Source: Beijerinckiaceae bacterium
GTDB taxonomy: Bacteria > Pseudomonadota > Alphaproteobacteria > Rhizobiales > Beijerinckiaceae
DNA: 64,000 nt
Assembly (NCBI GenBank): GCA_027533425.1
Contig: JAPZUD010000006.1
Span: 434,001-498,000 of the forward strand
Reading direction: 5' to 3'
This document shows positions 49,305-64,000 of the stretch, piece after piece. The notes under the pieces were generated by a model, which ran no database searches, had not been told where the DNA came from, and saw nothing but the letters and a program-made list of their open reading frames with translations. Within the stretch, counting starts at the first letter, position 1. Each line of letters opens with the position of its first letter. Both the position numbers and the translations under genes were made by a program.

Positions 49305-50306
49305 ATGCCGATGAACCTCAAGGGCCGCAGCCTCATCAGTCTCGATGACATCTCTGCCACGGAAATCCGGCATCTCCTCACGCTTGCCGCCGAACTGAAG
49401 GCGGCCAAGCATGCGGGAACCGAAATCCCGCGCCTCGCGCGGAAAAACATCGCCCTGATCTTCGAGAAGGATTCCACCCGTACCCGCACGGGCTTCGAGG
49501 TGGCTGCCTATGACCAAGGCGCGCATGTGACCTATCTCGGCCCGACGGGGAGCCAGATCGGCCACAAGGAGTCGATGAAGGATACCGCACGGGTTCTCGG
49601 TCGCATGTACGACGCCATCGAGTATCGGGGCTTCAGCCAGAACCTTGTCGAACAGCTGGCCCTCCATGCCGGCGTGCCCGTCTATAACGGCCTCACGGAC
49701 GAGGCGCATCCGACGCAGATCATCGCCGATATGCTGACGATGCGGGAATACACTCACAAGCATCTCTCGGACATGGCCGTGACCTTCCTCGGCGATATCC
49801 GGAACAATGTGGCCCGCTCCCTCAGCGTCGGGGCAATGAAGGTCGGTCTCGACCTGAGGCTGTGTGGACCGGCCGAATTCCGCCCGGATGACACGTTCGT
49901 CGATCATCTGAAGGTGCTGGCTGCCGCAAGCGGCGCGCGGCTGACGATCACAGACACCATCGCAAAGGCCGTCGCCGGAGCCGACTTCATCTACACCGAT
50001 GTCTGGCTGTCGATGGGGGAACCGAAATCCCTTTGGGCAGAGCGCATCGAACGGCTCGGCCCCTATCGCGTAACGGCCGATGTCATGCGGGCCAGCGGAA
50101 ACCCGCATGCGAAATTCATGCATTGCCTGCCCGCCTTCCACAATGCCGACACGGAGATTGGTGCCAGCATCGAGAAGGAATTCGGCATTGTCGGGCTTGA
50201 GGTCACGGAGGAGGTCTTCGAAAGCCGGGCCTCGATCGTCTTCGATCAGGCCGAGAACCGGATGCATACGATCAAGGCGATCCTTCTTGCCACTATCGGC
50301 AACTGA
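49305..50306 (+). CDS. arcB: Ornithine carbamoyltransferase, catabolic (ArcB)
   Basis: It converts citrulline and phosphate to ornithine and carbamoyl phosphate. The protein has 333 residues. The carbamoyl-phosphate site is [13 protein letters not shown], the second loop is [13 protein letters not shown] and the ornithine-side motif is HCLPAFHN. Catabolic use is inferred from the operon. It lies 13 bases after arcA. Confidence 0.96.
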
Positions 50307-50359
50307 TTGTCCGGAGCCACCCGATGCTGCCGTCCCGATCCACCCTCGAAAGCCGAAAG

Positions 50360-51268
50360 ATGCGCATTATCGTTGCGCTCGGGGGCAATGCACTCCTGCG
50401 GCGGGATGAAGCGCTCACGGCAGTGAACCAGGCGCGCAACCTAGCCCTCGCGACGGAAGCGCTCGCGCCACTCTTTGCCGCGGGCCACCAGATCATTCTC
50501 ACGCACGGAAACGGACCGCAGGTCGGTCATCTCGCAGCAAGGGCCGAGAGATGGCAGGAAGAGCCGGCGCCGCTGGATGTGCTCGATGCGGAGACAGCGG
50601 GCATGATCGGCTACGGCCTGGCCCAGAGCCTCCGGAATGCGATCGGGGCCACGTCCGAGATCGTCACGCTGCTCAGCGAGGTGGTGGTCGATGGCGATGA
50701 TCCCGCCTTCGAGCATCCCGCCAAGCCGATCGGTCAGATCTATTCCGAATCCGAGATGATAGCCATAACCGCCAGGCACTCCTGGATCACGGCGAGGGAA
50801 AGCAAGGGCTGGCGGCGCGTCGTACCATCGCCGATGCCGATCGAGATTCTCGGGCTGGACGGCATCCGGCTTCTTATGGAGCATGGATACGTGGTCATCT
50901 GCCTTGGCGGAGGCGGCATCCCGGTCATCCGCGATAGCACCGGCCGGATGCGCGGCGTCGAGGCGGTGATCGACAAGGATCTGGCGAGTTCGTTGCTGGC
51001 GAGGGAACTGAATGCCGACTGGCTGCTGATGTTAACGGATGTCGACGCCGTCTATACCGATTGGGGCACAAAGCAGGCCAGCGCAATTCGAAACATCACC
51101 GTGCCGGAATTGGCCAACCATCGCTTCGAGGCCGGCTCGATGGGCCCAAAGATCGCTGCCGCCGAGGCCTTCGTCCTGACAACACGCGGCAAGGCGGGTA
51201 TCGGGCGCCTGCAGGATGCTTCCCTGATCCTAGAAGGTCATGCCGGCAGCCGGATCCTCCCGACATGA
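50360..51268 (+). CDS. arcC: Carbamate kinase ArcC
   Basis: It transfers phosphate from carbamoyl phosphate to ADP, giving ATP, the energy-yielding step of the pathway. The protein has 302 residues. The start MRIIVALGGNALLRRDEAL carries the GGNALL loop; further motifs are THGNGPQVGHLAARAE, CLGGGGIPV, EAVIDKDLASSLLA and FEAGSMGPKIAAAEAFV. An ATG at 50324 would add 12 unrelated residues. It is the last gene of the operon. Confidence 0.95.
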   Translation: MRIIVALGGNALLRRDEALTAVNQARNLALATEALAPLFAAGHQIILTHGNGPQVGHLAARAERWQEEPAPLDVLDAETAGMIGYGLAQSLRNAIGATSEIVTLLSEVVVDGDDPAFEHPAKPIGQIYSESEMIAITARHSWITARESKGWRRVVPSPMPIEILGLDGIRLLMEHGYVVICLGGGGIPVIRDSTGRMRGVEAVIDKDLASSLLARELNADWLLMLTDVDAVYTDWGTKQASAIRNITVPELANHRFEAGSMGPKIAAAEAFVLTTRGKAGIGRLQDASLILEGHAGSRILPT

Positions 51269-51927
51269 CGGACGATGGCGATCCAGACGGTAATGGCGCA
51301 AGGGAAGTTTGATCCTCGAGACTGCCAGCTAGCCTAGGGCCAGAGCGCTTCGATCTCATCGGTATGCCGCATGGTGTGTCGGTTGAACCTTCAACCGGCA
51401 CTGTGTGGTTCAGACCTGCGGTGGTTGTCTGCTCTAGCAGCCTTGCTCGTTGTAACCCGCCCGTCCGCTTCCGGCCCCATTCCGGTCTATTGTTTTCAGG
51501 GCACAGTTATCGCCCGGCCCATGGCCAGCGTGACAGTGGTTCGCAACTTAACGAGCGATTTGGTGCGCAAGAGGGAATCGAACTTTTATAATATCATCTT
51601 GATTAAATGAATATATATTTCATTTGGTTTCAAAAGGGCCAACAGAAAGGCCAACATTTTTTGAGGCTGTTGGCTGACGCTATTTGCCACCCACAAAAAT
51701 TTTTCAATCGCTAGAGAGCTGATTGGGGGATTTGGCTTGGCCCGATCCGTCCTATCGGCATTGCTGACGGCATAATGAAATGGGAACCTCGCAAGGCGAC
51801 GCAATCTGGATTGTGGACCAAAAAAATTCAGCAAAAACGTGAGTAACTTTACGCATTCTTAAGAGCGGTTCAACGCGCCAAGAAGGCACAAATATCAAAT
51901 AAAGATCTGGGGTGAAGTTATTATAAC
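51269..51927. other. Gene-free junction between core genome and accessory island
   Basis: No convincing gene lies here. It contains a perfect eight-base-pair inverted repeat with a two-base loop (51380-51397, CGGTTGAA / TTCAACCG) shortly after arcC, a tRNA-3'-end-like sequence at 51561-51583, and AT-rich DNA from about 51590 on. Short open frames at 51364-51610 and 51586-51834 have no protein-like features. Confidence 0.6.
51561..51583 (-). other. tRNA 3'-end-like sequence, possible attachment site
   Basis: The minus strand reads GTTCGATT, then CCCTCTTGCGC, then ACCA: a T-loop, T-stem strand, acceptor strand and CCA. The T-stem side is one base short of canonical. The sequence upstream does not pair with it, so no full tRNA is present. 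Such fragments mark one edge of tRNA-targeting islands. Confidence 0.4.
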
Positions 51928-52215
51928 TCAGATCAATAAATCGATACGCCACATGCCTTCATCACTGTCCTGAAACCAAGTTCCAATCAGCGTATCCTCG
52001 TCCACGATATGATAAAATGTCGCCGTACCAGAGGCATTTACACGTCGCAATCTATAGAATCCGCCTCCTTGATCTTTTCCCTCGTAAACCTCCAACCCTG
52101 ATGCTGTTTTGTAGGAAACTGCTATTGTCCCATCAGAAATCCTGACTTCACACGGCGTCATTTCTGAACCATTACCGTAATAAGAAGTCACTTTCGAATT
52201 TTTGTATACAGGCAT
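51928..52215 (-). CDS. Small hypothetical protein
   Basis: A 95-residue acidic protein, MPVYKNSKVTSYYGNGSEM and onwards, predicted to be mainly beta strands (DGTIAVSYKTASGLEVYEGK, GTATFYHIVDEDTLIGTWF). AGAGG is correctly spaced before this ATG; an upstream start at 52287 lacks one. Codon use is AT-richer than in the core genome. It is divergent from the restriction operon. I recognise no family. Confidence 0.65.
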   Translation of the reverse strand: MPVYKNSKVTSYYGNGSEMTPCEVRISDGTIAVSYKTASGLEVYEGKDQGGGFYRLRRVNASGTATFYHIVDEDTLIGTWFQDSDEGMWRIDLLI

Positions 52216-52330
52216 AAGACACCTCTCATTACGTTCTCTGAGAATATTCATGCCGTCTTCAATTTCAAGACACCCCACCTCGTACATTGACTTCGAAGAG
52301 GTGGCCCTTCAAGCCCTACCTGTTGCGGCG

Positions 52331-52344
52331 CGATGCTAGCATCG
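52331..52344. repeat. 14-bp perfect palindrome upstream of mod
   Basis: CGATGCTAGCATCG lies between the divergent hypothetical gene and the restriction operon, 66 bases before the mod ATG. This is a plausible operator; no regulator gene is identified. Confidence 0.5.
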
Positions 52345-52409
52345 GCTAGCTGTAAAGGTCGGATAAGGACCCCCTGATTCCGGTAGGTGAATTGGAGAGG
52401 CTAGGCCGT

Positions 52410-54017
52410 ATGCCCACACTGGATTGGATCGGGAAGAAGGCGGTGGTGAACCACCATCGCGAAGTGCCGTATCGGCTGATCCATTGCAACAAGGATAAAA
52501 GCGTCGGCGATCCGGACGCGGGCAATTTGCTGGTGCAGGGCGACAACCTTGAAGCCTTGAAGGCGCTGCTGCCCTATTACGCGGGCAAAGTGAAGTGCAT
52601 CTATATCGATCCGCCCTACAACACCGGCAACGAAGGTTGGGTTTACAACGACAATGTGAACTCACCGGAAATTAAGGCGTGGCTTGGCTCAGTCGTGGGC
52701 AAGGAAGCCGAAGACCTCTCTCGCCACGATAAATGGCTGTGCATGATGTATCCGCGATTAAGGTTGCTGAAGGAATTTTTGAAAGACGACGGTGTAATTT
52801 TTGTTAGTATTGATGACAATGAAGCCGCCCGACTGACTATTGTTTTGGACGAAATATTTCGTTGTCGAATTGCTTCATTCATATGGAAAAGACGCCAGAC
52901 ACCAGATAGCCGTAACATAAACGGAACATCGGAAGATCATGAGTACGTTCTTTGTTACGGTCGAACAAATAAACCCACATTGAAGGGCGCTTCGAAGGAT
53001 ATAGATAAATATAAAAATCCGGACGACGATCCTCGCGGCCCTTGGATGAGCGATAATCTAACCGGCCTTGCAGATGCGACTGAGCGCCCGAATCTTCATT
53101 ACGTGGTAACGAACCCCGAAACTAAAATTTCATACCCGCCGCATCCCACGCGCGGTTGGGCCGTTGGGCCTGAACGAATGGCCACGCTTATTCGTGACAA
53201 TCAAATATTGTGGCCAAAATCGGCTCAAGGACGCCCGCGAATAAAGCGCTTCCTTGCAGACTTGAAGTCGGAAACTACTGGCCTTTCAACCTTTATAGAG
53301 GCGAGTGCAAATATTGCCGGTACGCGCGAAATCAATGAAATGTTTGGCGCAAAGGTCTTCGCATTCCCAAAGCCAAGGGACCTAATCGAAGCGCTTATCG
53401 ATCAGATTGCCGGATCTGACGATTATATTCTTGATAGTTTTGCAGGCACCGGAACAACCGGACACGCCGTTCTCGGATTGGAAGCGAGCGTTCGGCGCAA
53501 TCGTAAATTCATCTTGATCGAAATGGATGCAGGCATTGCTGCGAATGTTACTTCCGAACGATTACGAAAAGCGGTCGTTGGATATGAGCCTTCAAGTGGG
53601 AAGTCGGCGGTGAGTGGCCTCGGCGGCGGCTTTCGTTTCTGCACCCTTGGCGAACCGCTGTTCGATGCCGATGGCAATGTCAGTCCCGCCGTCACGTACC
53701 CGGACCTTGCCGCTCATGTGTTCTTTTGCGAGACGGGTTCGCCCATTCCGCGCCGGGCGGATGGTTCAACACCGCTGATCGGCACGTTCCAAGGCCGGGC
53801 GATCTATCTCTTGCACAATGCCGACGCCGTGGGCGTTGCCAACGCGAATGCCGGGAACGTGTTGACGGGTGGTGTTCTCGACGCGCTGCCTTTACCTGAA
53901 CCGGGCTTTACCGGCGCACGCATCGTTTATGGCGAAGGCTGCACCGTGCCCGATGACCGGCTTTCGCGCCTTGGCGTCACCTTCAAGCAAATCCCCTATC
54001 AGATTGAGGGGCTTTGA
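52410..54017 (+). CDS. Type III restriction-modification DNA methyltransferase (Mod-like)
   Basis: A 535-residue beta-class amino-methyltransferase. The catalytic motif DPPYNT (in IYIDPPYNTGNEGWVYND) comes before the SAM motif DSFAGTGTTGHAVL, as in Mod subunits of type III systems. It modifies adenine or cytosine at the amino group. The target-recognition part lies between these motifs, and this middle segment (about 52780-53590) is visibly AT-richer than both ends. The ATG has GGAGAGG upstream. It is the first gene of a five-gene operon; RhuM starts three bases after the stop. Confidence 0.92.
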   Translation: MPTLDWIGKKAVVNHHREVPYRLIHCNKDKSVGDPDAGNLLVQGDNLEALKALLPYYAGKVKCIYIDPPYNTGNEGWVYNDNVNSPEIKAWLGSVVGKEAEDLSRHDKWLCMMYPRLRLLKEFLKDDGVIFVSIDDNEAARLTIVLDEIFRCRIASFIWKRRQTPDSRNINGTSEDHEYVLCYGRTNKPTLKGASKDIDKYKNPDDDPRGPWMSDNLTGLADATERPNLHYVVTNPETKISYPPHPTRGWAVGPERMATLIRDNQILWPKSAQGRPRIKRFLADLKSETTGLSTFIEASANIAGTREINEMFGAKVFAFPKPRDLIEALIDQIAGSDDYILDSFAGTGTTGHAVLGLEASVRRNRKFILIEMDAGIAANVTSERLRKAVVGYEPSSGKSAVSGLGGGFRFCTLGEPLFDADGNVSPAVTYPDLAAHVFFCETGSPIPRRADGSTPLIGTFQGRAIYLLHNADAVGVANANAGNVLTGGVLDALPLPEPGFTGARIVYGEGCTVPDDRLSRLGVTFKQIPYQIEGL

Positions 54018-54019
54018 GC

Positions 54020-55063
54020 ATGTCGGACAAAACACCACCGCGCGAAGGCGAAATCCTGCTTTACACCGGATCGGCGGGCGCAATCCGCGTCGAAGTCCTG
54101 TTCGAAGAGGAAAGCTTTTGGCTAACGCAAAAGCGCATGGCCGAACTGTTCGAAGTGACGGTTCCGACGATCAATGAGCACCTTAAAAACGTGTTCAAAA
54201 CCAACGAATTGAATGAGGATTCAGTTATTCGGAAATTCCGAATGACTGCCGACGACGGCAAAAGTTATCTGACTAGCTTCTACAATCTGGACGCGATCAT
54301 CGCCGTTGGTTACCGCGTCAACAGCCGCCAAGCCACGCAGTTCCGGATTTGGGCAACGTCGGTCTTGCGCGAATTCATCGTCAAAGGCTTCGTTCTGGAC
54401 GACGAACGGCTGAAGCAGGGCAAGAAGTTTGGCAAGGACTATTTCGACGAACTGCTTGAGAAAATCCGGGAAATCCGGGCAAGCGAACGTCGCTTCTATC
54501 TCAAGATTACCGATATCTATGAGCAATGCAGCATTGATTACCGCAAGGACGATGAAGTCACCGAAAAGTTTTTCAAGACGGTGCAAAACAAGCTGCATTG
54601 GGCGATAACCGGCAAAACTGCCGCTGAAATCATCGCGTCGCGCGCCGATGCGACGAAGCCGAATATGGGGCTGACGAACTGGAAGAACGCGCCATCGGGC
54701 AAGATCGTCAAATCGGACGTGTCGATTGCCAAGAACTATCTTGGCGAACAGGAAATCAAGCCGCTGGAACGCATCGTGTCGATGTATCTCGACTATGCGG
54801 AAAACCAAGCCGCTCGCCAAATTCCGATGAAAATGACGGATTGGATTGTGAAACTGGACGCATTCTTGGCGTTCAACGAATACGAAATCCTTCAGGACGC
54901 GGGCAAGGTTTCCCACGCCGTGGCCAAAGCATTGGCGGAGAAGCAGTATGAAGCTTTCCGGGTGATTCAGGATCGCGCTTTTGAAAGCGATTTCGAGCGC
55001 AATGCATCCCGCATGATTGCAGCGGCGAAGCCCGCACCGAAAAAGAAGGGCAAACCCGAATGA
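54020..55063 (+). CDS. RhuM family protein
   Basis: A 347-residue protein of the virulence RhuM family, often found within restriction-modification loci. The N-terminal half (FWLTQKRMAELFEVTVPTINEHLKNVF, SFYNLDAIIAVGYRVNSRQATQFRIWATSVLREFI) looks DNA-binding. The C-terminal half is helical (NKLHWAITGKTAAEIIASRADATKPNMGLTNW) and ends in a Lys-rich tail. Its biochemical role is not established. The start is three bases after mod, and its stop overlaps the res ATG by four bases. Confidence 0.9.
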   Translation: MSDKTPPREGEILLYTGSAGAIRVEVLFEEESFWLTQKRMAELFEVTVPTINEHLKNVFKTNELNEDSVIRKFRMTADDGKSYLTSFYNLDAIIAVGYRVNSRQATQFRIWATSVLREFIVKGFVLDDERLKQGKKFGKDYFDELLEKIREIRASERRFYLKITDIYEQCSIDYRKDDEVTEKFFKTVQNKLHWAITGKTAAEIIASRADATKPNMGLTNWKNAPSGKIVKSDVSIAKNYLGEQEIKPLERIVSMYLDYAENQAARQIPMKMTDWIVKLDAFLAFNEYEILQDAGKVSHAVAKALAEKQYEAFRVIQDRAFESDFERNASRMIAAAKPAPKKKGKPE

Positions 55064-57729
55064 GCTTGCCCAATTTCAGCCTGAAGAACTACCAAATCCA
55101 GACGCTTGGCGCGCTGCGCAAGTTCCTCGAAAAGACGGTGGAATTCAACGACGCCGATACTGCGTTTTATGCACTCACCAAGCGGCCTTTCTTTCAGCCG
55201 CCAAGCTTGCCCGGCTTGCCCTATGTCTGCCTTCGCATCCCTACAGGCGGCGGCAAGACGATCCTTGCGGCGCATTCCATTGCCGTTGCCGCTGACAGCT
55301 TCCTTCGCACCGACCAACCAATTGTGCTTTGGTTGGTGCCATCGCAGACGATCCGCGATCAAACCTTGGCGAGCCTTCAGGATCGGGCGCACCAGAACCG
55401 CCGCGCCCTTGCGGATCGCTTCGGCGAAAATGTTCGCGTGATGACCGTTGCCGATGCGCTTTACGCTAAGCGCGCCGACTATGACGGCGGTGCGGTGGTG
55501 ATCGTTGCGACGATCCAAGCCTTCCGCGTCGAAGAGACGGAAGGCCGCAAGGTCTATGAAGCCAACGGCGAATTGATGGACCACTTCAGCGGGCTTGCCG
55601 AAGGACTGCGCGACGCATTGGAGATTGGACCTTCAAGCGATCCGATACCGTCCTTGGCGAATGTGATGCGCTTGCGCCGCCCAATGGTGATTGTCGATGA
55701 AGCCCACAATGCGCGCACGGATTTGTCCTTCGACACATTGGCGCGGCTGAAGCCATCGCTGATCATCGAATTCACGGCAACGCCTGTCACGCCGGAAGAA
55801 CACAAGCCTGAAAAGGGCATTTACGCGTCCAACGTGCTGCACCAAGTATCCGCCGCAGAACTCAAGGCAGCGGAAATGATCAAACTGCCCGTGATCCTTC
55901 GCGGGCGAGCCGATCATAACGAAACCATCGGCGATGCCATCGCATGGCTTGATGAACTGACAGAGACGGCAAAGGCAGAAGAGAAGGCCACGGGCGAATT
56001 CATCCGCCCCGTGATGCTGCTTCAATCCGAAGCGAAATCGAAGGACAGGCAGACGCTTCACGCCGAAGAAGTAAAGAAGCTTCTGATTGACGATTTCCGC
56101 GTTCCGGAAGCGGATGTCGTGATCGCGACCGGCGACACGAAAGGGCTTGAAGGCGTCGATCTGTTCGACCGCGATTGCAAGGTGCGCTTCATCATCACGC
56201 AACAGGCGTTGAAGGAAGGTTGGGATTGTTCCTTCGCCTATGTGTTGTGTTCGGTCGCGGAACAGAAATCGCCCCGCGCTGTGGAACAGCTTCTAGGCCG
56301 CGTGCTGCGTTTGCCGCGCGCCTCCCGCAAGAAGCATGAAGACCTGAACCGCGCCTATGCCTTTGCCACCACGACAAGCTTTCAAAACGCAGCGAACACC
56401 TTGCGCGACGGGCTGGTGAACAACGGCTTTGAAAAGGTCGAGGCGCAAGCGCTTGTGCGCGCGGTTCCCGTCATTCCCGGCATGGAAGCAGGCGGATCGG
56501 CCTTTGTCTATGAAGAAGCGCTTCCCGCCGAAATAGACGCCGCGATGTTTAAGACCAACATCGAAATTGCAACGGGCGGACGGGTTCAAGTCGATCTTGA
56601 AACGGGCACCATCCGGGCGCGCGGTGCGCTCACGGACTATGACCGCACGACGATGAAGCTTGCCATGCCGGAAGCGGCACGGGCTATCGATAACCTTGTC
56701 CATAAATCGCGCGGCGCGCGGCTGAAGGTGCCCGACCAGCAAGCCGAACCGATCCGCTTCGCCGTGCCCCAGTTGACCGTGCGGGCGGGGCAAGATCTTG
56801 GCAAAAATGCGTGGCAATTGTTCGACCGGGCGCATTTTCTCGATATCCCCTGGAAGCTTGAGGAAAGCGACGCCGCGCCGATCCTCGATTTCTTCGTGCC
56901 GCCGCGCAATGCCGCCGAAGAAGCGCATATCGATGTGGATGCTGCCCAAAAAGTGAAGGTTGAATTCGTCACCGATTTGCACGAACAGCTTTCCTTGGCG
57001 CTGGCCTTGCGTGGGTGGACCAAGAACGCACTTGTGAACTGGATAGATCGGCGATTGCCCTATTCGTCGCGCCGCGACATTACGCGCGTGTCTTCGACGC
57101 TGTTCATCTCTAAAGCGCTGGACGTGATTTCGACGAAAACCGGTATGACGGTTGAAGCCTTGGCGAGGGCGAATTTCCGGCTTGTCGATGCATTTATGAA
57201 GGTAATTGCCAAGCATCGCGATATTCGCGAAGCCGCCGCTTTTGAACGCGCCCTGTTCCCGCAAAGCGGCCTTGAATTCCAAACCAGTGCCGACGTTGAA
57301 CTTCTGTTCGATGAAAGCCGCTATGGCTATAACCAGCCCTATAAAGGTGGCACAGATTTCAAGAAGCATCTGTTCCGCGTGATCGGCGATCTTGAAGCGA
57401 CCGGCGAAGAACACGAATGCGCCATCGCAATTGAGCGAAATCCCCACATCAAGGCATGGGTGCGCAACACGTCAAAGCAGCCGCATTCGTTTTGGCTGCA
57501 AACATCATCGGACAAGTTCTATCCCGATTTCATCGCCCTGTTGAACGACGGGCGCGTCATGGTGATCGAATACAAGGGCGCACCCTACTTCACCAACGAC
57601 GATTCACGTGAAAAGCGATTAATCGGCGATCTTTGGGCGAATCGATCCGACGGCAAGTGCCTGTTTCTCATGATTGAGAAGAAGGAATTCGCGCGGATTG
57701 ATCGGGTAATCATTGGAGCTTCGAATTGA
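55060..57729 (+). CDS. Type III restriction endonuclease subunit (Res-like helicase-nuclease)
   Basis: An 889-residue superfamily 2 helicase with a C-terminal nuclease. Walker A is RIPTGGGKTILAA, Walker B VIVDEAHNA, motif III FTATPVT and motif VI QLLGRVLRLPRA. The nuclease motif PD...E-x-K is in FYPDFIALLNDGRVMVIEYKG near residue 835. With Mod it would form an ATP-dependent restriction complex. The ATG overlaps the rhuM stop (ATGA). Confidence 0.93.
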   Translation: MSLPNFSLKNYQIQTLGALRKFLEKTVEFNDADTAFYALTKRPFFQPPSLPGLPYVCLRIPTGGGKTILAAHSIAVAADSFLRTDQPIVLWLVPSQTIRDQTLASLQDRAHQNRRALADRFGENVRVMTVADALYAKRADYDGGAVVIVATIQAFRVEETEGRKVYEANGELMDHFSGLAEGLRDALEIGPSSDPIPSLANVMRLRRPMVIVDEAHNARTDLSFDTLARLKPSLIIEFTATPVTPEEHKPEKGIYASNVLHQVSAAELKAAEMIKLPVILRGRADHNETIGDAIAWLDELTETAKAEEKATGEFIRPVMLLQSEAKSKDRQTLHAEEVKKLLIDDFRVPEADVVIATGDTKGLEGVDLFDRDCKVRFIITQQALKEGWDCSFAYVLCSVAEQKSPRAVEQLLGRVLRLPRASRKKHEDLNRAYAFATTTSFQNAANTLRDGLVNNGFEKVEAQALVRAVPVIPGMEAGGSAFVYEEALPAEIDAAMFKTNIEIATGGRVQVDLETGTIRARGALTDYDRTTMKLAMPEAARAIDNLVHKSRGARLKVPDQQAEPIRFAVPQLTVRAGQDLGKNAWQLFDRAHFLDIPWKLEESDAAPILDFFVPPRNAAEEAHIDVDAAQKVKVEFVTDLHEQLSLALALRGWTKNALVNWIDRRLPYSSRRDITRVSSTLFISKALDVISTKTGMTVEALARANFRLVDAFMKVIAKHRDIREAAAFERALFPQSGLEFQTSADVELLFDESRYGYNQPYKGGTDFKKHLFRVIGDLEATGEEHECAIAIERNPHIKAWVRNTSKQPHSFWLQTSSDKFYPDFIALLNDGRVMVIEYKGAPYFTNDDSREKRLIGDLWANRSDGKCLFLMIEKKEFARIDRVIIGASN

Positions 57730-58454
57730 CCGAATCGAAACATTTACTGCGAAGAGCCCATTGCGCAGAGTGCGGTGGCATTCGCAATTGTGACATTCGT
57801 GGCCATCATCAAAAATCAGGTGAAGACGCTGATGGTTATTATCAATATTGGATCGATATATACATATTACAATGTCGAGGCTGTGATAGCTTGTTTGTTC
57901 AAAAAATCGAATCAAATTCAGAAGACGTGAATCAATATTATGATCACGATGGGTCGACAGTATCAGAATTGATTGAGTCAATTACGTATTGGCCATCTAT
58001 ATCAAATCGATTAAAGCCAACGTGGTTTCCAGAGTTACAATTTGAAATAGAAGGTGCTCAAACGCTATTCGAATCAATGAACGAAATGTATGGCGCGTTA
58101 GATGCAGGCTTGCCGCGATTGGCTGTCATTGGAATTAGAACGTCCTTTGATGTGGCATCAGCAATGCTTAGTGTGCCTGAGAACCTATCCTTTGAAAACA
58201 AGATAAAACAATTAGTAAATATTGGAAAACTAACCAATGTAGATCAAGCTCGCCTTACTGTGTTGGTTGATGCTGGCAACGCTTCAGCGCATCGCGGGTG
58301 GAATCCCAAGCCGGACGATCTCAAGTTATTGGCGGAGATTTTGGAGCATTTCGTTGAAAATGTTTTTATCCTTCCTTTGCGGACAAGTCGGCTTGACGCC
58401 CAAGCGGCCAAGCTGAAGCCCAAGGTGCCACCTCGCCCGAAGAAGTCCAAATGA
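57726..58454 (+). CDS. DUF4145 domain-containing protein
   Basis: A 242-residue protein. A zinc-ribbon-like N terminus has CAECGG and CRGCDS. The DUF4145 core follows (LPRLAVIGIRTSFDVASAML, QLVNIGKLTNVDQARLTVLVDAGNASAHRGWNP). DUF4145 is frequently fused to or next to restriction enzymes, with unknown function. The start is TTG overlapping the res stop (TTGA). The first 530 bases or so are much more AT-rich than the genes on both sides. The stop overlaps the next ATG. Confidence 0.85.
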   Translation: MTESKHLLRRAHCAECGGIRNCDIRGHHQKSGEDADGYYQYWIDIYILQCRGCDSLFVQKIESNSEDVNQYYDHDGSTVSELIESITYWPSISNRLKPTWFPELQFEIEGAQTLFESMNEMYGALDAGLPRLAVIGIRTSFDVASAMLSVPENLSFENKIKQLVNIGKLTNVDQARLTVLVDAGNASAHRGWNPKPDDLKLLAEILEHFVENVFILPLRTSRLDAQAAKLKPKVPPRPKKSK

Positions 58455-59677
58455 TTGAACCCGATAAACGAACGAATATCGTTCAAGCGCCAATCTTCCC
58501 CACATATACGGATATCGGCTTTGCGATCCGGTCGCTTGATGGCGAGCCGTTGCGCCGGGTTCGGGACATGATCAATGCTGTTTCGGAACAGACCGGCACC
58601 CCCCAAAGCCCGGTCGATTGGTCCGATCCTGATACATGGATCATGGAACGTCTCACGGGCGATCTTCAGGACTTGGCGCGCAAGGTGTGGGAAGACAGCA
58701 AGAAGACGCTGAACCCGCGCTACCTATATGGCTGCTATCTATTCATCAACCGCTTGAAGCTGTTGGATCAAGACGGCGGCGTCTATCAGCTTGGCGAGCG
58801 CGGGCGGAAGTTCCTTGCCGGTGACGAAGCCGTCCTTCGCGAACTGGACGCGGTGGAAGGCTTGCCGAAACTGCTTTCCCTCATTGCCGAACGTTCGCCC
58901 TGCAAACGCGGCGACATTCTGCCTGCATGGTCCGACTACCTAAAGGCGGTATCGCTGTTCGCGACGCCGAAAACCTTCGCTGACACATTGCGGCGTCGGT
59001 TGCTCAACCTTGCCGAGCGCGGATTGGTGACGCGCGAAGGAAACTTCTACGCCATTACCGAGACCGGCTTATACTGGCTAAAGGGCTTTGCGGGTTCGCC
59101 TGAAAGCGCAGTCGCCGCACCGTCTTCGAAGCGTTCCATCGTAATGGAAGCCGCCATTTCCCAAAAGGACGAAGAGTTGAAAGCCTTCAAAGCGCGTCTG
59201 ATGGCGCTTGAAGCGGTTCAGTTCGAACACTTCGTCAAAGAGCTTTTGGATGCGATGGACTACGAAGATGTCCGCGTCACCAAGCGCAGCCATGACAAGG
59301 GCGTTGATGTTGTCGCCAATGTGCATGTCGGTATTACCGAAATCGTCGAAATGGTTCAGGTGAAGCGGACGGAAAACACGATTGTTCGCGAAATCGTTGA
59401 TAAATTGCGCGGCGCGCTGCCCTATCACAAGGCCATTCGTGGTTCGATCATCACGTTGGGCAAGTTCGCCAAAGGCGCGATTGACGGCGCGTTACACAAC
59501 CCACCGATCACGCTTGTTGATGGCGAGCGCTTCCTGAAACTGTGTATCAAGCACCAAGTCGGGATCAAGCGCAGCGCCGTTGAAATCTACGAAATAGATG
59601 AAGCCTTCTTCGCCCAAAAATTCGGGATGGTGGAAGACGAAGAGATTGTGCCTGCGCCTAATGAGTCTGACGAGTGA
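58451..59677 (+). CDS. Mrr-like restriction endonuclease with winged-helix N terminus
   Basis: A 408-residue protein. The N-terminal half looks like tandem winged helices (YLYGCYLFINRLKLLDQDGGVYQLGERGRKFL; LLNLAERGLVTREGNFYAITETG). Then comes an Mrr-type nuclease: FEHFVKELLDAMDYEDVRVT, catalytic Asp in HDKGVDVVANV and Q-x-K in EMVQVKRTEN. Mrr enzymes normally cleave methylated DNA, so the presence of a methyltransferase in the same operon is noteworthy. The ATG overlaps the DUF4145 stop (ATGA). Confidence 0.88.
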   Translation: MIEPDKRTNIVQAPIFPTYTDIGFAIRSLDGEPLRRVRDMINAVSEQTGTPQSPVDWSDPDTWIMERLTGDLQDLARKVWEDSKKTLNPRYLYGCYLFINRLKLLDQDGGVYQLGERGRKFLAGDEAVLRELDAVEGLPKLLSLIAERSPCKRGDILPAWSDYLKAVSLFATPKTFADTLRRRLLNLAERGLVTREGNFYAITETGLYWLKGFAGSPESAVAAPSSKRSIVMEAAISQKDEELKAFKARLMALEAVQFEHFVKELLDAMDYEDVRVTKRSHDKGVDVVANVHVGITEIVEMVQVKRTENTIVREIVDKLRGALPYHKAIRGSIITLGKFAKGAIDGALHNPPITLVDGERFLKLCIKHQVGIKRSAVEIYEIDEAFFAQKFGMVEDEEIVPAPNESDE

Positions 59678-59788
59678 AATGGAAGCCAAGAAGGCACTCT
59701 TCTCACTCTTGATCTCGATAAACAGAGCATTGCTGTAGTTGCAGTGTCTGGAGGCATCTTGGCTCCAACCATGCTCATTAGGCTTGCA

Positions 59789-59971
59789 ATGACATCGGAA
59801 AGCCCGCGCCGCAGGCGTGTAGGTTATTTCGCGCTAAGCGGGCTCTGTTTTTTGTTTTTCGCTGGCTGTTTCTATTTGGGCGTGACGGGCGAGAACCGGG
59901 CCGGGATCACTTGGACGAGCATTGCCGCTTGCTGCACCTATTGGGCATCGAAAAGAGCGCGCATTCAATAG
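59789..59971 (+). CDS. Possible small membrane protein
   Basis: A 60-residue open frame, MTSESPRRRRVGYFALSGLC and onwards, with a basic N terminus and two hydrophobic segments (VGYFALSGLCFLFFAGCFYLGV; AGITWTSIAACCTYWA). There is no strong ribosome binding site and no known family. The surrounding 59678-60161 holds no other gene candidate. Confidence 0.35.
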   Translation: MTSESPRRRRVGYFALSGLCFLFFAGCFYLGVTGENRAGITWTSIAACCTYWASKRARIQ

Positions 59972-60161
59972 CGCTCTCCACTTAGTGAAGCCTCGCGCAG
60001 TGTCGCGCTTAAACTTTTTGTCAGAACGTCCGCCCAACGGCACATAAGCCGGTGTGTGGCACCAGTTTCCCGATTTCAGCTATTGAATCTTTGCCGCTTG
60101 AGCACATCGAATATGCTGGCTAGCTTTGATCAAGGCAGATACCGGCGAAGCGGAGAAACAA

Positions 60162-60725
60162 GTGCGGGCCTTTATTGTTTTGATTGTTACTGCTTTTTTC
60201 ACGCAGCCATCGGTGGCGGTGGTAATCGACTCATCAAAGTGTGTTGTCATTTTCAATGGTGATGATCGTCTCAAATGTTTCGACGAGGCGGTCAAATTCA
60301 CCATTGAGAATGGCCCTCCCACCATCACGCCACCAAAGGCAAGCGAACCAGCGGCATCGACAGCCGCGCCGCAGGATTTCAAGGTCGTTGATCCGAATGA
60401 CATTCGTAACACGCCGACAAAGTGGCAGGGGCGCCCAATTCAATTTAACAACGTTCGTGTTTATTGGGTCAGCGACACTGACGTGCGTATTCTTACAAAC
60501 ATAAACCTTACACTTTTTGCCGTGAAGGTGGTTGGCCCGCCAGAGGCGATACAGTTTTATAAATCGAATTGTGAAACAGAGCGCGAAGCTACAAGCCAAA
60601 AATGTCGAGCATCTGTTCGCTTTACGTATCTCAAGCATGGCGAAGATACGCCTTCCGGCCTGATGAAGCGAACTGTGCTGATTTCGAATGATGTTACATT
60701 TGTTAGGAGCCAAGGGCGGCGCTAG
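60162..60725 (+). CDS. Hypothetical secreted protein
   Basis: A 187-residue protein starting at a GTG with GGAG seven bases upstream. A signal peptide (MRAFIVLIVTAFFTQPSVAV) is followed by a Cys-containing segment, a Pro/Ala-rich linker (about 65-85) and a mainly beta domain (GRPIQFNNVRVYWVSDTDVRI). Four Cys in the mature part could form disulfides. A longer TTG start (60126) would mask the signal peptide. It is followed directly by a terminator. No family recognised. Confidence 0.7.
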   Translation: MRAFIVLIVTAFFTQPSVAVVIDSSKCVVIFNGDDRLKCFDEAVKFTIENGPPTITPPKASEPAASTAAPQDFKVVDPNDIRNTPTKWQGRPIQFNNVRVYWVSDTDVRILTNINLTLFAVKVVGPPEAIQFYKSNCETEREATSQKCRASVRFTYLKHGEDTPSGLMKRTVLISNDVTFVRSQGRR

Positions 60726-60748
60726 CCCGGCGCATTGCCGGGCTTTTT
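60724..60748 (+). terminator. Rho-independent terminator
   Basis: AGCCCGGC / GCCGGGCT forms an eight-base-pair stem with a GCATT loop followed by TTTT. It starts at the very end of the secreted-protein gene. Confidence 0.92.
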
Positions 60749-60770
60749 CGTCTCCGCGCAGCAGCTGGGT

Positions 60771-61175
60771 TCAGGCGCGACCGCTATGGAGCAACAAGAC
60801 GCCTGCGGCTGCGATCTGTTCCGGGCTCTTCCCATCTTCGGTAGCTAGACGCTTTAGCCCAATGTGAATGGACGCCAGCGACGCGCCCGTCGTGATAGCA
60901 GGCTCCAGATTGACAATCAGCCCGACCCTTTCTGCCAATCGCTGGCTTTCCATTATCCGCAAAATGCGCTTTCGCTCATTCGCCACGGCCGTGCATACGC
61001 CAACTGGCAGCGGGGCTGGCTCATTCTCTACGGCCAGCAAAAGCCCAAGCCTCGCCGCACGCCGGACGGCGGCGCGGGGCCGCTGGGTTCGGGCCTCTGG
61101 GTTCGGAATATTCACTCCGGGTTCGTGATGATGGCTGTTGTCTGTTGCGGATCGTCCAAGTTGCTTATCGGTCAT
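60771..61175 (-). CDS. Hypothetical protein
   Basis: A 134-residue protein. The N-terminal 45 residues are polar with His and Pro; the rest is helical (ILRIMESQRLAERVGLIVNLEPAITTGASLASIHIGLKRLATED). GAGG lies before the ATG. It is the last of several minus-strand genes of a presumed mobile element and convergent with the secreted-protein gene. No family recognised. Confidence 0.6.
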   Translation of the reverse strand: MTDKQLGRSATDNSHHHEPGVNIPNPEARTQRPRAAVRRAARLGLLLAVENEPAPLPVGVCTAVANERKRILRIMESQRLAERVGLIVNLEPAITTGASLASIHIGLKRLATEDGKSPEQIAAAGVLLLHSGRA

Positions 61176-61301
61176 CTAGAGCCTCTGTTGGTTTGATTTG
61201 TATAGACATTTCGAACCCATCGAAAAAATTGATTCCGAGGGGTAGCACGCGGGCGGCGTTACCCGCATCTGCCGGCGGGGGGCTCCTAGGACCCAATTCC
61301 T

Positions 61302-61410
61302 ATACCCCCCGGGGGTATGTGGGCCATCCCCCGGCCACCCCCATGCCCCTAGGGGGGCAGCGCAGGCTGCTGGCTGGCTTCGCGGATGCGGCGGCGTAGC
61401 TAGCCGCCGC
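61302..61410. repeat. Cluster of GC-rich palindromes
   Basis: Three perfect inverted repeats are close together: ATACCCCC-C-GGGGGTAT (61302-61318), CCCCTAGGGG (61346-61355) and GCGGCGGC-7-GCCGCCGC (61388-61410). They lie in a gene-free gap of 260 bases. None has a T-run, so simple termination is unlikely. Confidence 0.6.
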
Positions 61411-61435
61411 ACCTTGCCGGGCGCTGGCGGCGTTC

Positions 61436-61984
61436 TTATGCGGCCTTGCCTTGGGCAAGGAAGGCTTCGATTTCACTATCGGGTGCCAGCACCACGGCCG
61501 GCATCGCAGAAGCACGCCTCTGAATATTGATCCCCTCGGCTTCACTTTGCCTTATGAGCGACTCTTCTGTGGCCTCCAGCATGACGAGTTCGACTTCCTT
61601 GGCGGCGAGGGCGGCCTTGGCCTCGATAGCCGAAAGCCGGAAAGCCGGATCAGCAGCCGACGCTTCGGCTTCACCTTCCTTGGCCAGCAGATCGACCAAA
61701 GATTTGGGGTTCATAACCGCCAGCAGTTCCGCCCCCGAGAGCCGGGCCAACCATTCTGCCGCTCGGCCAGCCCGGTAGTTCTCGTGGCTCGCCCCGCATG
61801 CGCCGAGGTTGATACGCGCAAGGGCTTCGTCTCGAATTGCGTTCACTTCGATTTCGGCACGAGCCTTGATTTCGCTAGCCGGCGGGAAGGGGTCGGCCAA
61901 ATTCGCCACCACTTCCGAAGCTGCGCTGATCCGCCCGCGAAGGTCATCTACTTGGGCGCCTAGAGCTTTAATGTTGAATGCCAT
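61436..61984 (-). CDS. Hypothetical coiled-coil protein
   Basis: A 182-residue, Ala/Glu-rich helical protein, MAFNIKALGAQVDDLRGRIS and onwards, with coiled-coil potential at about 5-55 and 110-150 and an alpha-helical middle (RAAEWLARLSGAELLAVMNPKSLVDLLAKEG). AAAGGA precedes the ATG. The gene is 14 bases after the next coiled-coil gene on the minus strand. It may be an accessory protein of a phage or integrative element; no family recognised. Confidence 0.7.
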   Translation of the reverse strand: MAFNIKALGAQVDDLRGRISAASEVVANLADPFPPASEIKARAEIEVNAIRDEALARINLGACGASHENYRAGRAAEWLARLSGAELLAVMNPKSLVDLLAKEGEAEASAADPAFRLSAIEAKAALAAKEVELVMLEATEESLIRQSEAEGINIQRRASAMPAVVLAPDSEIEAFLAQGKAA

Positions 61985-61998
61985 TGTCAGGATTCCTT

Positions 61999-62379
61999 TC
62001 AGATTTTCAGGCCGCGTGAAGCGGCGTAGTCGCGGCAATTATTGGCCAGCCGCATTGCTTCTGCGGCGATGGATTGCCGGGCGGAATAGGCCGCTTGCGC
62101 CGATTGGCATTCATCCAGTGCGGCTTGGTAAGCCGCCTGCGCTGACGTGATCGCAGCCTCGTGGCGATCGCGCTCGCTCTGTTCCACGTCTGAATCGAGG
62201 TAGCGCGGCCGGGCGGCCTTTTGAGTTCGAACCGCATCCAGTTCGTGCAGTAGGTCTTTGGCGTCGGCCTGCCGGTGTTTCAGCTTTTCATGCGCCGTCT
62301 TCACAGCGGAATTGGCCGCGTCGCCCTGCTCCAGCAAGGCACCCAGTCGGTGCCGGTCTATCGAAAACTTAGGTTCCAT
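61999..62379 (-). CDS. Hypothetical coiled-coil protein
   Basis: A 126-residue, highly charged helical protein, MEPKFSIDRHRLGALLEQGD and onwards, predicted as one long coiled coil (AHEKLKHRQADAKDLLHELDAV; AAITSAQAAYQAALDECQSAQAAY). It lies immediately before the other coiled-coil gene, probably in one transcript. No known domain. Confidence 0.68.
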   Translation of the reverse strand: MEPKFSIDRHRLGALLEQGDAANSAVKTAHEKLKHRQADAKDLLHELDAVRTQKAARPRYLDSDVEQSERDRHEAAITSAQAAYQAALDECQSAQAAYSARQSIAAEAMRLANNCRDYAASRGLKI

Positions 62380-62526
62380 ATTCGTTACCCCATGGCTGTG
62401 GTGGTTGTTGCTTGCCGTGCCGGTCGCCTCAGCGGCCGGCGGTCGGACTCCTTCGGATGGATAGGGCCGCCATGAAGGTCAGCGCTTCCCCTCGGTCAGC
62501 ATCCCAAAATCCGGCTCTGTTGCCGC

Positions 62527-62613
62527 CGGGACAGATCGGGACAAACCGGGACATGTCCCGAGTTGTCGGGGGACAGGACGGGACAGGGAGACTAGAAGTC
62601 TCCTGTCCTGTCC
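62527..62613. repeat. Iteron-like CGGGACA repeats and large hairpin
   Basis: CGGGACA occurs at 62527-62533, 62537-62543 and 62547-62553, exactly ten bases apart. The third copy joins an inverted copy to make the 14-base palindrome at 62547-62560. Further copies lie in a hairpin at 62576-62613 whose core GGAGACT-AGA-AGTCTCC is perfect and extends to about 17 pairs with one bulge and a G-T pair. It lies just downstream of the RepA-like gene. Confidence 0.7.
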
Positions 62614-62631
62614 CGCTCCCGTGTCCCGCTG

Positions 62632-63840
62632 TCAGACCAGCCATACCCACGCCTCCCCTTCGTCTTTGAACCCGATTGCTCCTTGAAGCTGTCCGTCTGT
62701 CAGTGCGCGCTGGAACGCCTTTTTCTTGGACTCTGCGCGCTTGGCTTCAGTGTCCCCGTCAGCCGGGTATCGCTGGTAAAACTCACGGCGCAGAACTTCG
62801 CGAGGAACGGCTGTAAATTCATGGCCGTTGAGCCCATGCGGCCGGACTGGTTCGCCGCTATCGGCAACCACAGCGCGAAAAGCCTGAAGCAAGATAGTTA
62901 CCGGCTTAGAGAGCGGGCGCTTGGGCTTGACCGGTTCCAGCGACGCTTCACCCGGCACGATAAAGGCGCTCAAAACCGGCTCGCCGTCTTCGTCCTTGCC
63001 AACCTCAATCGAGCAAAGGTCGAATCCTGCGTTCCAGCCAGTTTCGAGCCAGCGGCTCTTGGTCATTGCCACACGCCGGCCGCTCACTTTGCCCGTGGCG
63101 GCCTCGCGCTCGGCGAGCACAGCGAGAATGGCATCTGCGCTCGCAGTGTAGGCGGAACTGCCCCGAATTCCCGTGTCAGCGTCCTTCCCATAGTGCGCGA
63201 CGATTAGAGCAAGGGCACCGGCCGCTTCAGCCATTTTTTGGAGTATCGCCATTTCTTGAGTGGCCACCCCATCGGCGTTTTTGTCCTCACCGGTGGCGAA
63301 GGCTGCGCTCAATGTGTCAATAACCAACAGCCGGAGCGGAATTCCGAAGCGGTCGCGCATGTCGGCCGAAACCTCAACAATCTTGGCAGTTACGGCCTTC
63401 TGAACCTCTGGAGCCTTAAGGCTGCCCGGCAGAGCCATCCATGCAATTGGCAGCCCTTCGCCAAGGGGCTCTTCCGCCAGCTTGCCTAGCCGAATGGCTT
63501 CAAGCCGCTCGGCAATGGTGCCTAAGCCCTCCGCAAGCAGGAAAAGGCTGCCGCCGCGATCGCGGACTTTGTGGCCAAAGAAATCATCGCCGGTTGCGAG
63601 GCAAGAGGCCAGTTCAAGGGCCAAAAATGTTTTGCCCGCCCCAGATTGCCCGGCAAGAACGGCAAGACCGTTGCGGGGTAGCAAGCCCTTGACCAATTCA
63701 CGGCGAACAGGTGTGGCCTCGCCATGCCAATGGATTTTGACTGGCGGGACGGGCTTTTGCGCGAAAGCCGGCCCGCTCGGCTCGCCAAGCGTGCCGAAAG
63801 ATTCATCGTGGAACCGGGCTGCATCGGCCATCGCGATCAC
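62632..63840 (-). CDS. AAA family ATPase, RepA/DnaB-like
   Basis: A 402-residue RecA-fold ATPase of the plasmid RepA / mobile-element helicase type. Walker A is LAGQSGAGKTFLALELA, Walker B LRLLVIDTLSAAF, followed by the sensor-like ALALIVAHYGKD and GIRGSSAYTASADAILAV. The C-terminal 120 residues (VTILLQAFRAVVADSGEPVRP) look like a winged helix. It probably acts in replication of the element. The start is GTG overlapping the upstream gene's stop (GTGA); an ATG lies nine bases further. Confidence 0.85.
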   Translation of the reverse strand: MIAMADAARFHDESFGTLGEPSGPAFAQKPVPPVKIHWHGEATPVRRELVKGLLPRNGLAVLAGQSGAGKTFLALELASCLATGDDFFGHKVRDRGGSLFLLAEGLGTIAERLEAIRLGKLAEEPLGEGLPIAWMALPGSLKAPEVQKAVTAKIVEVSADMRDRFGIPLRLLVIDTLSAAFATGEDKNADGVATQEMAILQKMAEAAGALALIVAHYGKDADTGIRGSSAYTASADAILAVLAEREAATGKVSGRRVAMTKSRWLETGWNAGFDLCSIEVGKDEDGEPVLSAFIVPGEASLEPVKPKRPLSKPVTILLQAFRAVVADSGEPVRPHGLNGHEFTAVPREVLRREFYQRYPADGDTEAKRAESKKKAFQRALTDGQLQGAIGFKDEGEAWVWLV

Positions 63841-64000
63841 CGTTCCAGTTCTGAGGTTTTGAACGGTCCGCCGCCGCGCGCGATGCAGCGATCTATGGCT
63901 CCGATCAACCGATGGCGCAGGGCGATCCCGCGAGCATCCAGCCAGAATTCATGGCCGCGATGCCGCATGATATGCCGGGCAAGTGCACCCTGAATTTCGG
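63837..64000 (-). CDS. Hypothetical protein, C-terminal fragment at window edge
   Basis: An open minus-strand frame enters from the right edge and ends in TGA overlapping the GTG of the ATPase gene. The visible 54 residues end with RHRGHEFWLDARGIALRHRL, then IGAIDRCIARGGGPFKTSELER. The overlap indicates an operon. Too little is seen to name a family. Confidence 0.6.
   Translation of the reverse strand, partial: EIQGALARHIMRHRGHEFWLDARGIALRHRLIGAIDRCIARGGGPFKTSELER

What the first reader, a model, noticed from the sequence alone, without database searches (positions are those of the whole stretch)
52410..59677. Five-gene, fully coupled restriction operon: Mod, RhuM, Res, DUF4145, Mrr
Every junction is a 3-base gap or a four-base overlap (ATGA, TTGA, ATGA), so the five proteins are probably made together. 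A type III-like Mod/Res pair is ordinary. Here RhuM sits between Mod and Res, and a zinc-ribbon DUF4145 protein plus an Mrr-like nuclease follow. Mrr usually attacks methylated DNA, so it must either spare the Mod mark or act as a second, conditional layer. This may be a composite defence system not described as a unit.
Basis: partly seen in the sequence, partly recalled or inferred. Interest (0 to 1): 0.75.

Follow-up and report, generated by a model that had tools for sequence, protein, structure and literature searches.

The report
Mobile restriction operon with added genes
This is a DNA-cutting defence against viruses, carried on a mobile island, that has kept a little-understood partner gene in a recurring position and picked up two further defence-type genes at its end; the parts are known kinds, and the five-gene combination was not seen in the relatives searched.

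Summary
In detail: five same-strand genes (type III Mod, RhuM, Res, zinc-ribbon DUF4145, Mrr-type nuclease) at 52410-59677, joined by 4-base overlaps (or a 2-base gap at Mod/RhuM). The five-gene order is not conserved: 0 of 130 other Res loci, 99 of which show at least 2.4 kb downstream. Three layers separate. (1) Mod-Res is an ordinary type III pair whose homology starts at mod's ATG and stops at the end of res; its recognition region was exchanged between close relatives. (2) RhuM belongs to it more closely: it lies between mod and res in 4 of the 20 loci with Res at 50% identity or more, 3 more keep deletion scars (2 clear, 1 weak), two RhuM lineages use the same slot, and some type I operons place RhuM likewise behind hsdM. 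(3) DUF4145-Mrr is an addition seen only here. Three of the four other full-length relatives of this Mrr stand beside methyltransferase operons, so it may tolerate its partner's mark. The operon is cargo of a 15-kb integrase island at tRNA-Thr. Best reading: a mobile type III system with a slot-specific accessory plus an appended second nuclease layer. A jointly working five-part machine is possible but unsupported.

The parts
52410..54017 (+). mod: type III N6-adenine DNA methyltransferase, beta-class motif order (DPPYN 67-71 before FAGTGTT 344-350), variable target-recognition region about residues 139-404
   Evidence: (PDB 6k0w Mod, 4zcf EcoP15I Mod, 7dsu Mbo45V)
54020..55063 (+). rhuM: Virulence_RhuM family accessory gene in the mod-res slot (possible TTG start at 54014)
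55060..57729 (+). res: superfamily-2 helicase (GGGKT 63-67, DEAH 213-216) with C-terminal PD-(D/E)xK-like motif (PDF...EYK 822-839)
57726..58454 (+). zinc-ribbon plus DUF4145 (HEPN clan) protein; no Arg 5-7 residues before H189
58451..59677 (+). Mrr-type nuclease: winged-helix-like stretch about 178-213 (below Pfam cut-offs), Mrr_cat 252-365 with D286 and Q303-V-K305; no Mrr_N match
51566..51583 (.). putative left attachment repeat: 18 bases identical to the 3' end of a tRNA-Thr gene that lies right of the window next to an integrase

Best explanation
A type III restriction-modification system carried by a 15-kb integrase island, whose operon holds one slot-specific accessory gene (rhuM) and two genes (DUF4145, mrr-like) joined to its 3' end. 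Mod marks adenines on host DNA and gives Res its target; Res translocates along unmarked DNA with ATP and cuts it (established for the type III family, inferred here). RhuM, encoded between the two, is an accessory effector or regulator tied to the methyltransferase. The Mrr-type nuclease adds an independent second layer against DNA bearing foreign modifications or structures and tolerates the Mod mark, as relatives apparently tolerate neighbouring methyltransferases. The DUF4145 protein is most likely a non-catalytic nucleic-acid-binding or regulatory partner, since it lacks the usual HEPN arginine. Shown: gene content, order, motifs, distribution, scars, island. Inferred: all activities and the independence of the layers.
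For: Type III identity. Against 16 of the 20 close loci, DNA similarity starts at 52407-52419 and ends at 57578-57716, with no alignment over 60 bases elsewhere in window 50000-64000, so DUF4145-Mrr lies outside the inherited unit. Same-genus locus L002 (Res 94%) has mod-res, a weak rhuM scar and no DUF4145 in its 900 bases downstream. RhuM slot: 4 of 20 close loci; scars in L008 (0 of 300 shuffles as good), L017 (1 of 300), L002 (12 of 300). Mrr beside methyltransferases: E. coli, 63 bases before hsdM-hsdS-hsdR in 3 of 3 chromosomes viewed; 871 of 5426 genomes hold at least 80% of the mrr gene and 794 at least 80% of the joined mrr-hsdM piece; Salmonella houtenae, before a helicase, N-6 methylase and S gene; Vibrio plasmid, behind an MmeI-like methyltransferase cluster. 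Island.
Against: Four tight junctions suggest selection for common expression. The E. coli, Salmonella and Vibrio relatives are 41-48% identical, so tolerance of the mark is by analogy; in one of the 3 E. coli chromosomes viewed hsdM is annotated as frameshifted. The fourth full-length relative, a tandem pair (L204, 34-36%), had no methyltransferase among its 2 neighbours scanned. 31 of the 130 Res loci, 4 of them in the close clade (L002, L005, L018, L211), show under 2.4 kb downstream and could hide an Mrr gene.
Confidence: 0.6

Rival explanations
1. An integrated five-part system: Mod-Res senses or cuts first, and DUF4145 with Mrr is a backup or suicide arm released when Mod-Res is inhibited or fails.
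For: All four junctions are tight; HEPN, Sir2, ParB and REase-fold genes are reported in type I and III operons and proposed as toxins or second line (passages of PMC3506569 and PMC3710099); a DUF4145-bearing BREX-associated protein is reported to protect against T4 (passages of PMC10799925).
Against: Order in 0 of 130 other Res loci; no close DUF4145-Mrr pair in the loci scanned, only a Yersinia plasmid region with a short Mrr-like ORF about 5 kb off on the other strand; HEPN arginine missing.
Confidence: 0.18
2. Two unrelated cassettes share a transcript by chance of insertion; Mrr or DUF4145 adds nothing in this host.
For: The DUF4145-Mrr addition was found only in this genome among the Res loci; 11 DUF4145 plasmid regions viewed, of 22 records matched, show no type I or III genes annotated within 7 kb (the plasmid gene table is incomplete).
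Against: All ORFs are intact and Mrr keeps its catalytic residues; 4-base overlaps need precise joins; Mrr relatives favour methyltransferase neighbours; one DUF4145 relative follows an hsdM-hsdS run (L205).
Confidence: 0.15
3. Mrr attacks the Mod mark and its presence is a conflict, held down by DUF4145 or by weak expression, as in the reported antagonism between E. coli Mrr and type III Mod.
For: Toxicity of the StyLTI Mod with E. coli Mrr and mutual exclusion of their homologues, as described in PMC8989522 (passage).
Against: This Mrr lacks Mrr_N and relatives live beside hsdM; an Mrr_N-bearing Mrr also follows mod-res on a Pseudomonas plasmid.
Confidence: 0.05

Closest known systems
Type III restriction-modification (EcoP15I, StyLTI kind)
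   Same: Mod of beta class with PADLOC and PDB matches to type III Mods; Res with SF2 helicase and C-terminal PD-(D/E)xK-like motif; adjacent co-oriented genes
   Different: RhuM between mod and res, DUF4145 and Mrr behind
Type I operons with RhuM (hsdM-rhuM-hsdS ... hsdR)
   Same: RhuM directly behind the methyltransferase gene, overlaps of 4 or 8 bases in the three regions viewed
   Different: Type I subunits; no DUF4145 or Mrr annotated
PADLOC candidate PDC-S02 and the E. coli Mrr-type gene upstream of hsdMSR
   Same: Full-length similarity, 47% to E. coli; PDLC04796 6.2e-155; beside a methyltransferase operon
   Different: Type I partner, upstream position
E. coli K-12 Mrr (type IV)
   Same: Mrr_cat with D...QxK
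   Different: No Mrr_N match; about 240 residues of a different N-terminal part
HEPN / DUF4145 proteins in R-M operons (PMC3710099, passages)
   Same: DUF4145 domain, zinc ribbon, R-M context
   Different: Arginine of the RNase motif absent

Membership tests
Type III restriction-modification | Mod: beta-class N6-adenine methyltransferase with DPPY before FxGxG and a central recognition region | tested here: met
   Motifs at 67-71 and 344-350, central region 139-404 variable; PDB matches to type III Mods
Type III restriction-modification | Res: SF2 helicase plus PD-(D/E)xK nuclease, gene next to mod | tested here: met
   rhuM lies between the two genes
Type III restriction-modification | Methylation of one strand of an asymmetric site; cleavage needs two sites and ATP | not testable with these tools
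   needs long-read methylome and enzymology
RhuM family (PF13310, PDC-S05) | Full-length family match | tested here: met
   5.6e-114 Pfam, 1.4e-154 PADLOC
E. coli K-12-type Mrr (type IV) | Mrr_cat domain with D...QxK | tested here: met
   D286, Q303/K305
E. coli K-12-type Mrr (type IV) | Mrr_N domain | tested here: not met
   no match at E 0.01; the Pseudomonas plasmid Mrr does match
E. coli K-12-type Mrr (type IV) | Cleavage depends on DNA modification | not testable with these tools
   biochemistry needed
PDC-S02 (PADLOC candidate) | Full-length match to a PDC-S02 model | tested here: met
   PDLC04796, residues 8-391 of 408
HEPN RNase toxin | DUF4145 domain (HEPN clan) | tested here: met
   clan membership from PMC3710099 (passage)
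HEPN RNase toxin | R-x4-6-H active-site motif (formula recalled; the passages seen speak only of conserved or lacking R and H) | tested here: not met
   no Arg 5-7 residues before H189; 17 of 19 readable rows lack the Arg that 2 outliers carry 8 residues before the His
Conserved five-gene defence unit | Same order in independent genomes | tested here: not met
   0 of 130 Res loci, 99 with at least 2.4 kb downstream

The most novel reading that the evidence does not exclude
RhuM is a true third component of methyltransferase-based restriction systems, held in a fixed slot between the methyltransferase and the recognition or nuclease gene in both type I and type III operons, exchanged there as a cassette and lost by internal deletion; and this Mrr subfamily is a modification-tolerant companion nuclease of such operons, so that the window shows both companions on one type III system.
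Probability: 0.3. Interest if true: 0.65.

Novelty: new variant of a known kind. Interest (0 to 1): 0.4.

Why it matters
RhuM is usually filed as a virulence protein. Its slot behind methyltransferase genes, with swaps and scars, makes a testable case that it works with restriction. A Mrr-type nuclease beside a type III Mod also bears on the reported incompatibility of the two.

Tried and rejected
Structure models were uninformative: RhuM with 5 aligned sequences gave mean pLDDT 52.8 (10-residue blocks of 60 or more only at about 31-110, 161-190 and 261-280; the first holds helices and a hairpin that could be a winged helix) and no PDB match with E up to 0.001; Mrr alone gave 34.8. By sequence, PDB gave no match for Mrr or Res and only weak ones (E 0.11 or worse) for RhuM and DUF4145. 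The viral-contig scan gave no confirmed relative of Mrr or DUF4145 (10 candidate stretches each); 26 Res relatives there entered the count. The empty site was not found: flanks searched in 6 relatives gave one 87-base match and nothing (the tool warns that the second, empty answer shows nothing without a positive control). In the class sample of 385 genomes, 1 besides the window has a full-length relative of this Mrr and 45 more a partial match, and 6 besides the window a DUF4145 relative. Considered and dropped: the five-gene unit as a conserved module; Mrr as K-12-type Mrr; DUF4145 as a standard HEPN RNase.

Limits of the counts: one search kept only the best 80 of 553 confirmed Res relatives; 3 of 69 plasmid records with a Res match were opened. 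One search started from 159 Res loci, 134 after removing duplicates, 4 of them fragments of the window itself, leaving 130 (at least two pairs are pieces of one gene); the mod end is visible in 114. Neighbours were sought with profiles built here from the window's proteins and their relatives, so remote family members could be missed. The RhuM regions were picked because the listing already showed hsdM under the match. The structure-search and shuffle results for the L002 scar are weak, and its 22-base end match may reflect conserved start signals of res.
Full report
What is there. Five intact co-oriented ORFs lie at 52410-59677. Pfam and PADLOC name them type III Mod, RhuM, type III Res, DUF4145 (Pfam only) and an Mrr-type nuclease. 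Mod has DPPYN at 67-71 and FAGTGTT at 344-350; Res has GGGKT, DEAH and PDF...EYK; the Mrr-type protein keeps D286 and Q303-V-K305; the DUF4145 protein has two CxxC pairs. GC is 50-58% from 52 to 61 kb against about 62-66% from 43 to 51 kb. The genome holds one DUF4145 and one Mrr_cat gene, these two.

Setting. An integrase (Arm-DNA-bind_3, Phage_int_M, Phage_integrase) lies just right of the window beside a tRNA-Thr gene. Eighteen bases of the tRNA's 3' end recur at 51566-51583, left of the operon. In window numbering the tRNA copy is at 66606-66623, so the island is about 15.06 kb and the operon is its cargo. The empty site was not found in 6 relatives.

Is the five-gene order conserved? Res relatives came from a genome scan (78 loci, the best of 553), viral contigs (26), three plasmids opened of 69 matched, a class sample of 385 genomes (24 with a match, the window's included) and an order sample of 397 (6 with a match, the window's included). 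After removing duplicates and the window's own pieces 130 remain, 99 with at least 2.4 kb downstream and 114 with the mod end visible. RhuM is co-oriented in the operon in 5; a DUF4145 gene is adjacent in 1 (L046, opposite strand); Mrr-type genes lie in the flanks of 3 (L121 co-oriented downstream and a second one upstream; L049 about 4 kb upstream; L241 downstream on the opposite strand); the five-gene order is in none. In the 20 loci with Res at 50% or more: RhuM 4, DUF4145 0, Mrr 0; four of these 20 have under 2.4 kb downstream.

The inherited unit. Sixteen of these 20 loci were compared with window 50000-64000: DNA similarity begins at mod's start (52407-52419) and stops near the end of res (57578-57716), with no other alignment over 60 bases. 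DUF4145-Mrr is therefore outside the inherited unit. Within Mod, the ends are about 94% identical to the same-genus locus L002 (130 of 138 and 124 of 131 residues) but the middle only 78 of 266: the recognition region was exchanged.

RhuM. Four loci carry it between mod and res with the same overlap into res. Three loci without it keep short remnants in the gap: L008 (score 72 against a shuffle mean of 29; 0 of 300 as good), L017 (1 of 300) and, weaker, L002 (12 of 300). The Res tree joins window, L002, L017 and L223 (support 89/93, not starred), so rhuM was probably present in their ancestor and lost at least twice. Two RhuM lineages fill the slot: window, L015, L003 (with L074, which has it behind res) and L223, L012, about 50% identical between lineages; L223 is close to the window by Res but not by RhuM, so the gene was probably exchanged. 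On plasmids, 124 records match RhuM; 6 of the 30 listed matches overlap an annotated methyltransferase. Of four regions opened, three chosen because hsdM was listed are hsdM-rhuM-hsdS, and the fourth is mod-rhuM-res. PMC3710099 (passages) already notes RhuM in R-M loci and proposes a toxin role.

Mrr. The N-terminal 240 residues do not match Mrr_N. Other full-length relatives: E. coli, 871 of 5426 genomes with at least 80% of the gene, in 3 of 3 chromosomes opened 63 bases before a type I methyltransferase gene, annotated as frameshifted in one; 794 genomes hold at least 80% of the joined mrr-hsdM piece. Salmonella houtenae: before a helicase, N-6 methylase and S gene. Vibrio plasmid: behind an MmeI-like methyltransferase, helicase and GIY-YIG gene. 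The reported antagonism between E. coli Mrr and a type III Mod is known to me from PMC8989522 and PMC12707154 (passages); the original paper was not held. A Mrr_N-type Mrr about 300 bases behind mod-res on a Pseudomonas plasmid shows that the combination is not always excluded.

DUF4145. PMC3710099 places the family in the HEPN superfamily and in R-M operons (passages). Here no Arg stands 5-7 residues before H189; 17 of 19 readable rows lack the Arg that two outliers have 8 residues before the His. Of 11 plasmid regions opened (22 records matched) none has type I or III genes annotated within 7 kb; one has a DUF262 gene, one an annotated methyltransferase, one a small annotated restriction endonuclease on the other strand. 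One genome locus, L205, has a DUF4145 gene two ORFs behind an hsdM-hsdS run.

Verdict. A mobile type III system with a recurring accessory gene, extended here by two more defence-type genes. The five-gene run is real and unique in this sample, but nothing shows that it works as one machine. The general idea that HEPN and REase-fold genes ride in type I and III operons is in print (PMC3506569, passages). No text naming mod-rhuM-res or the five-gene unit turned up in the listings of searches of an open-licence library; most subscription papers are not in it.

Noticed in passing
52824-53621 (mod middle) against L002: Recognition region of Mod replaced (78 of 266 residues identical) between same-genus loci whose Mod ends and Res are about 94% identical.
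   Followed up: partly
L002, L008, L017, mod-res gaps: Short remnants of deleted rhuM genes between mod and res, weak in L002.
   Followed up: yes
L121:6456-11912: Pseudomonas plasmid with mod-res followed about 300 bases on by an Mrr_N/Mrr_cat gene.
   Followed up: partly
L245:8228-16502 (E. coli ATCC 25922): Mrr-type gene of this subfamily between BrnTA and hsdMSR; a match in 872 of 5426 complete E. coli genomes.
   Followed up: partly
L022, L025, L032, L040, L057, L066, L077, L079, L234 mod-res gaps: Gaps of 460-2150 bases between mod and res in distant relatives hold other readable frames (in L040 Fic-like by eye, not tested); the gap may be a general accessory slot.
   Followed up: no
L204:1820-4296: Two tandem full-length Mrr-type genes of this subfamily; an alcohol dehydrogenase and an unknown gene among the neighbours.
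   Followed up: partly
L205:5171-11502: hsdM-hsdS, then one ORF not scanned and one without family match, then a DUF4145 gene with a 4-base overlap.
   Followed up: partly
61436-63840, - strand: Rest of the island: an AAA_25 ATPase gene and small genes without Pfam matches ahead of the integrase.
   Followed up: partly
51928-52287, - strand: 119-aa ORF without matches in Pfam, PADLOC or NCBIfam just upstream of mod, inside the island.
   Followed up: no
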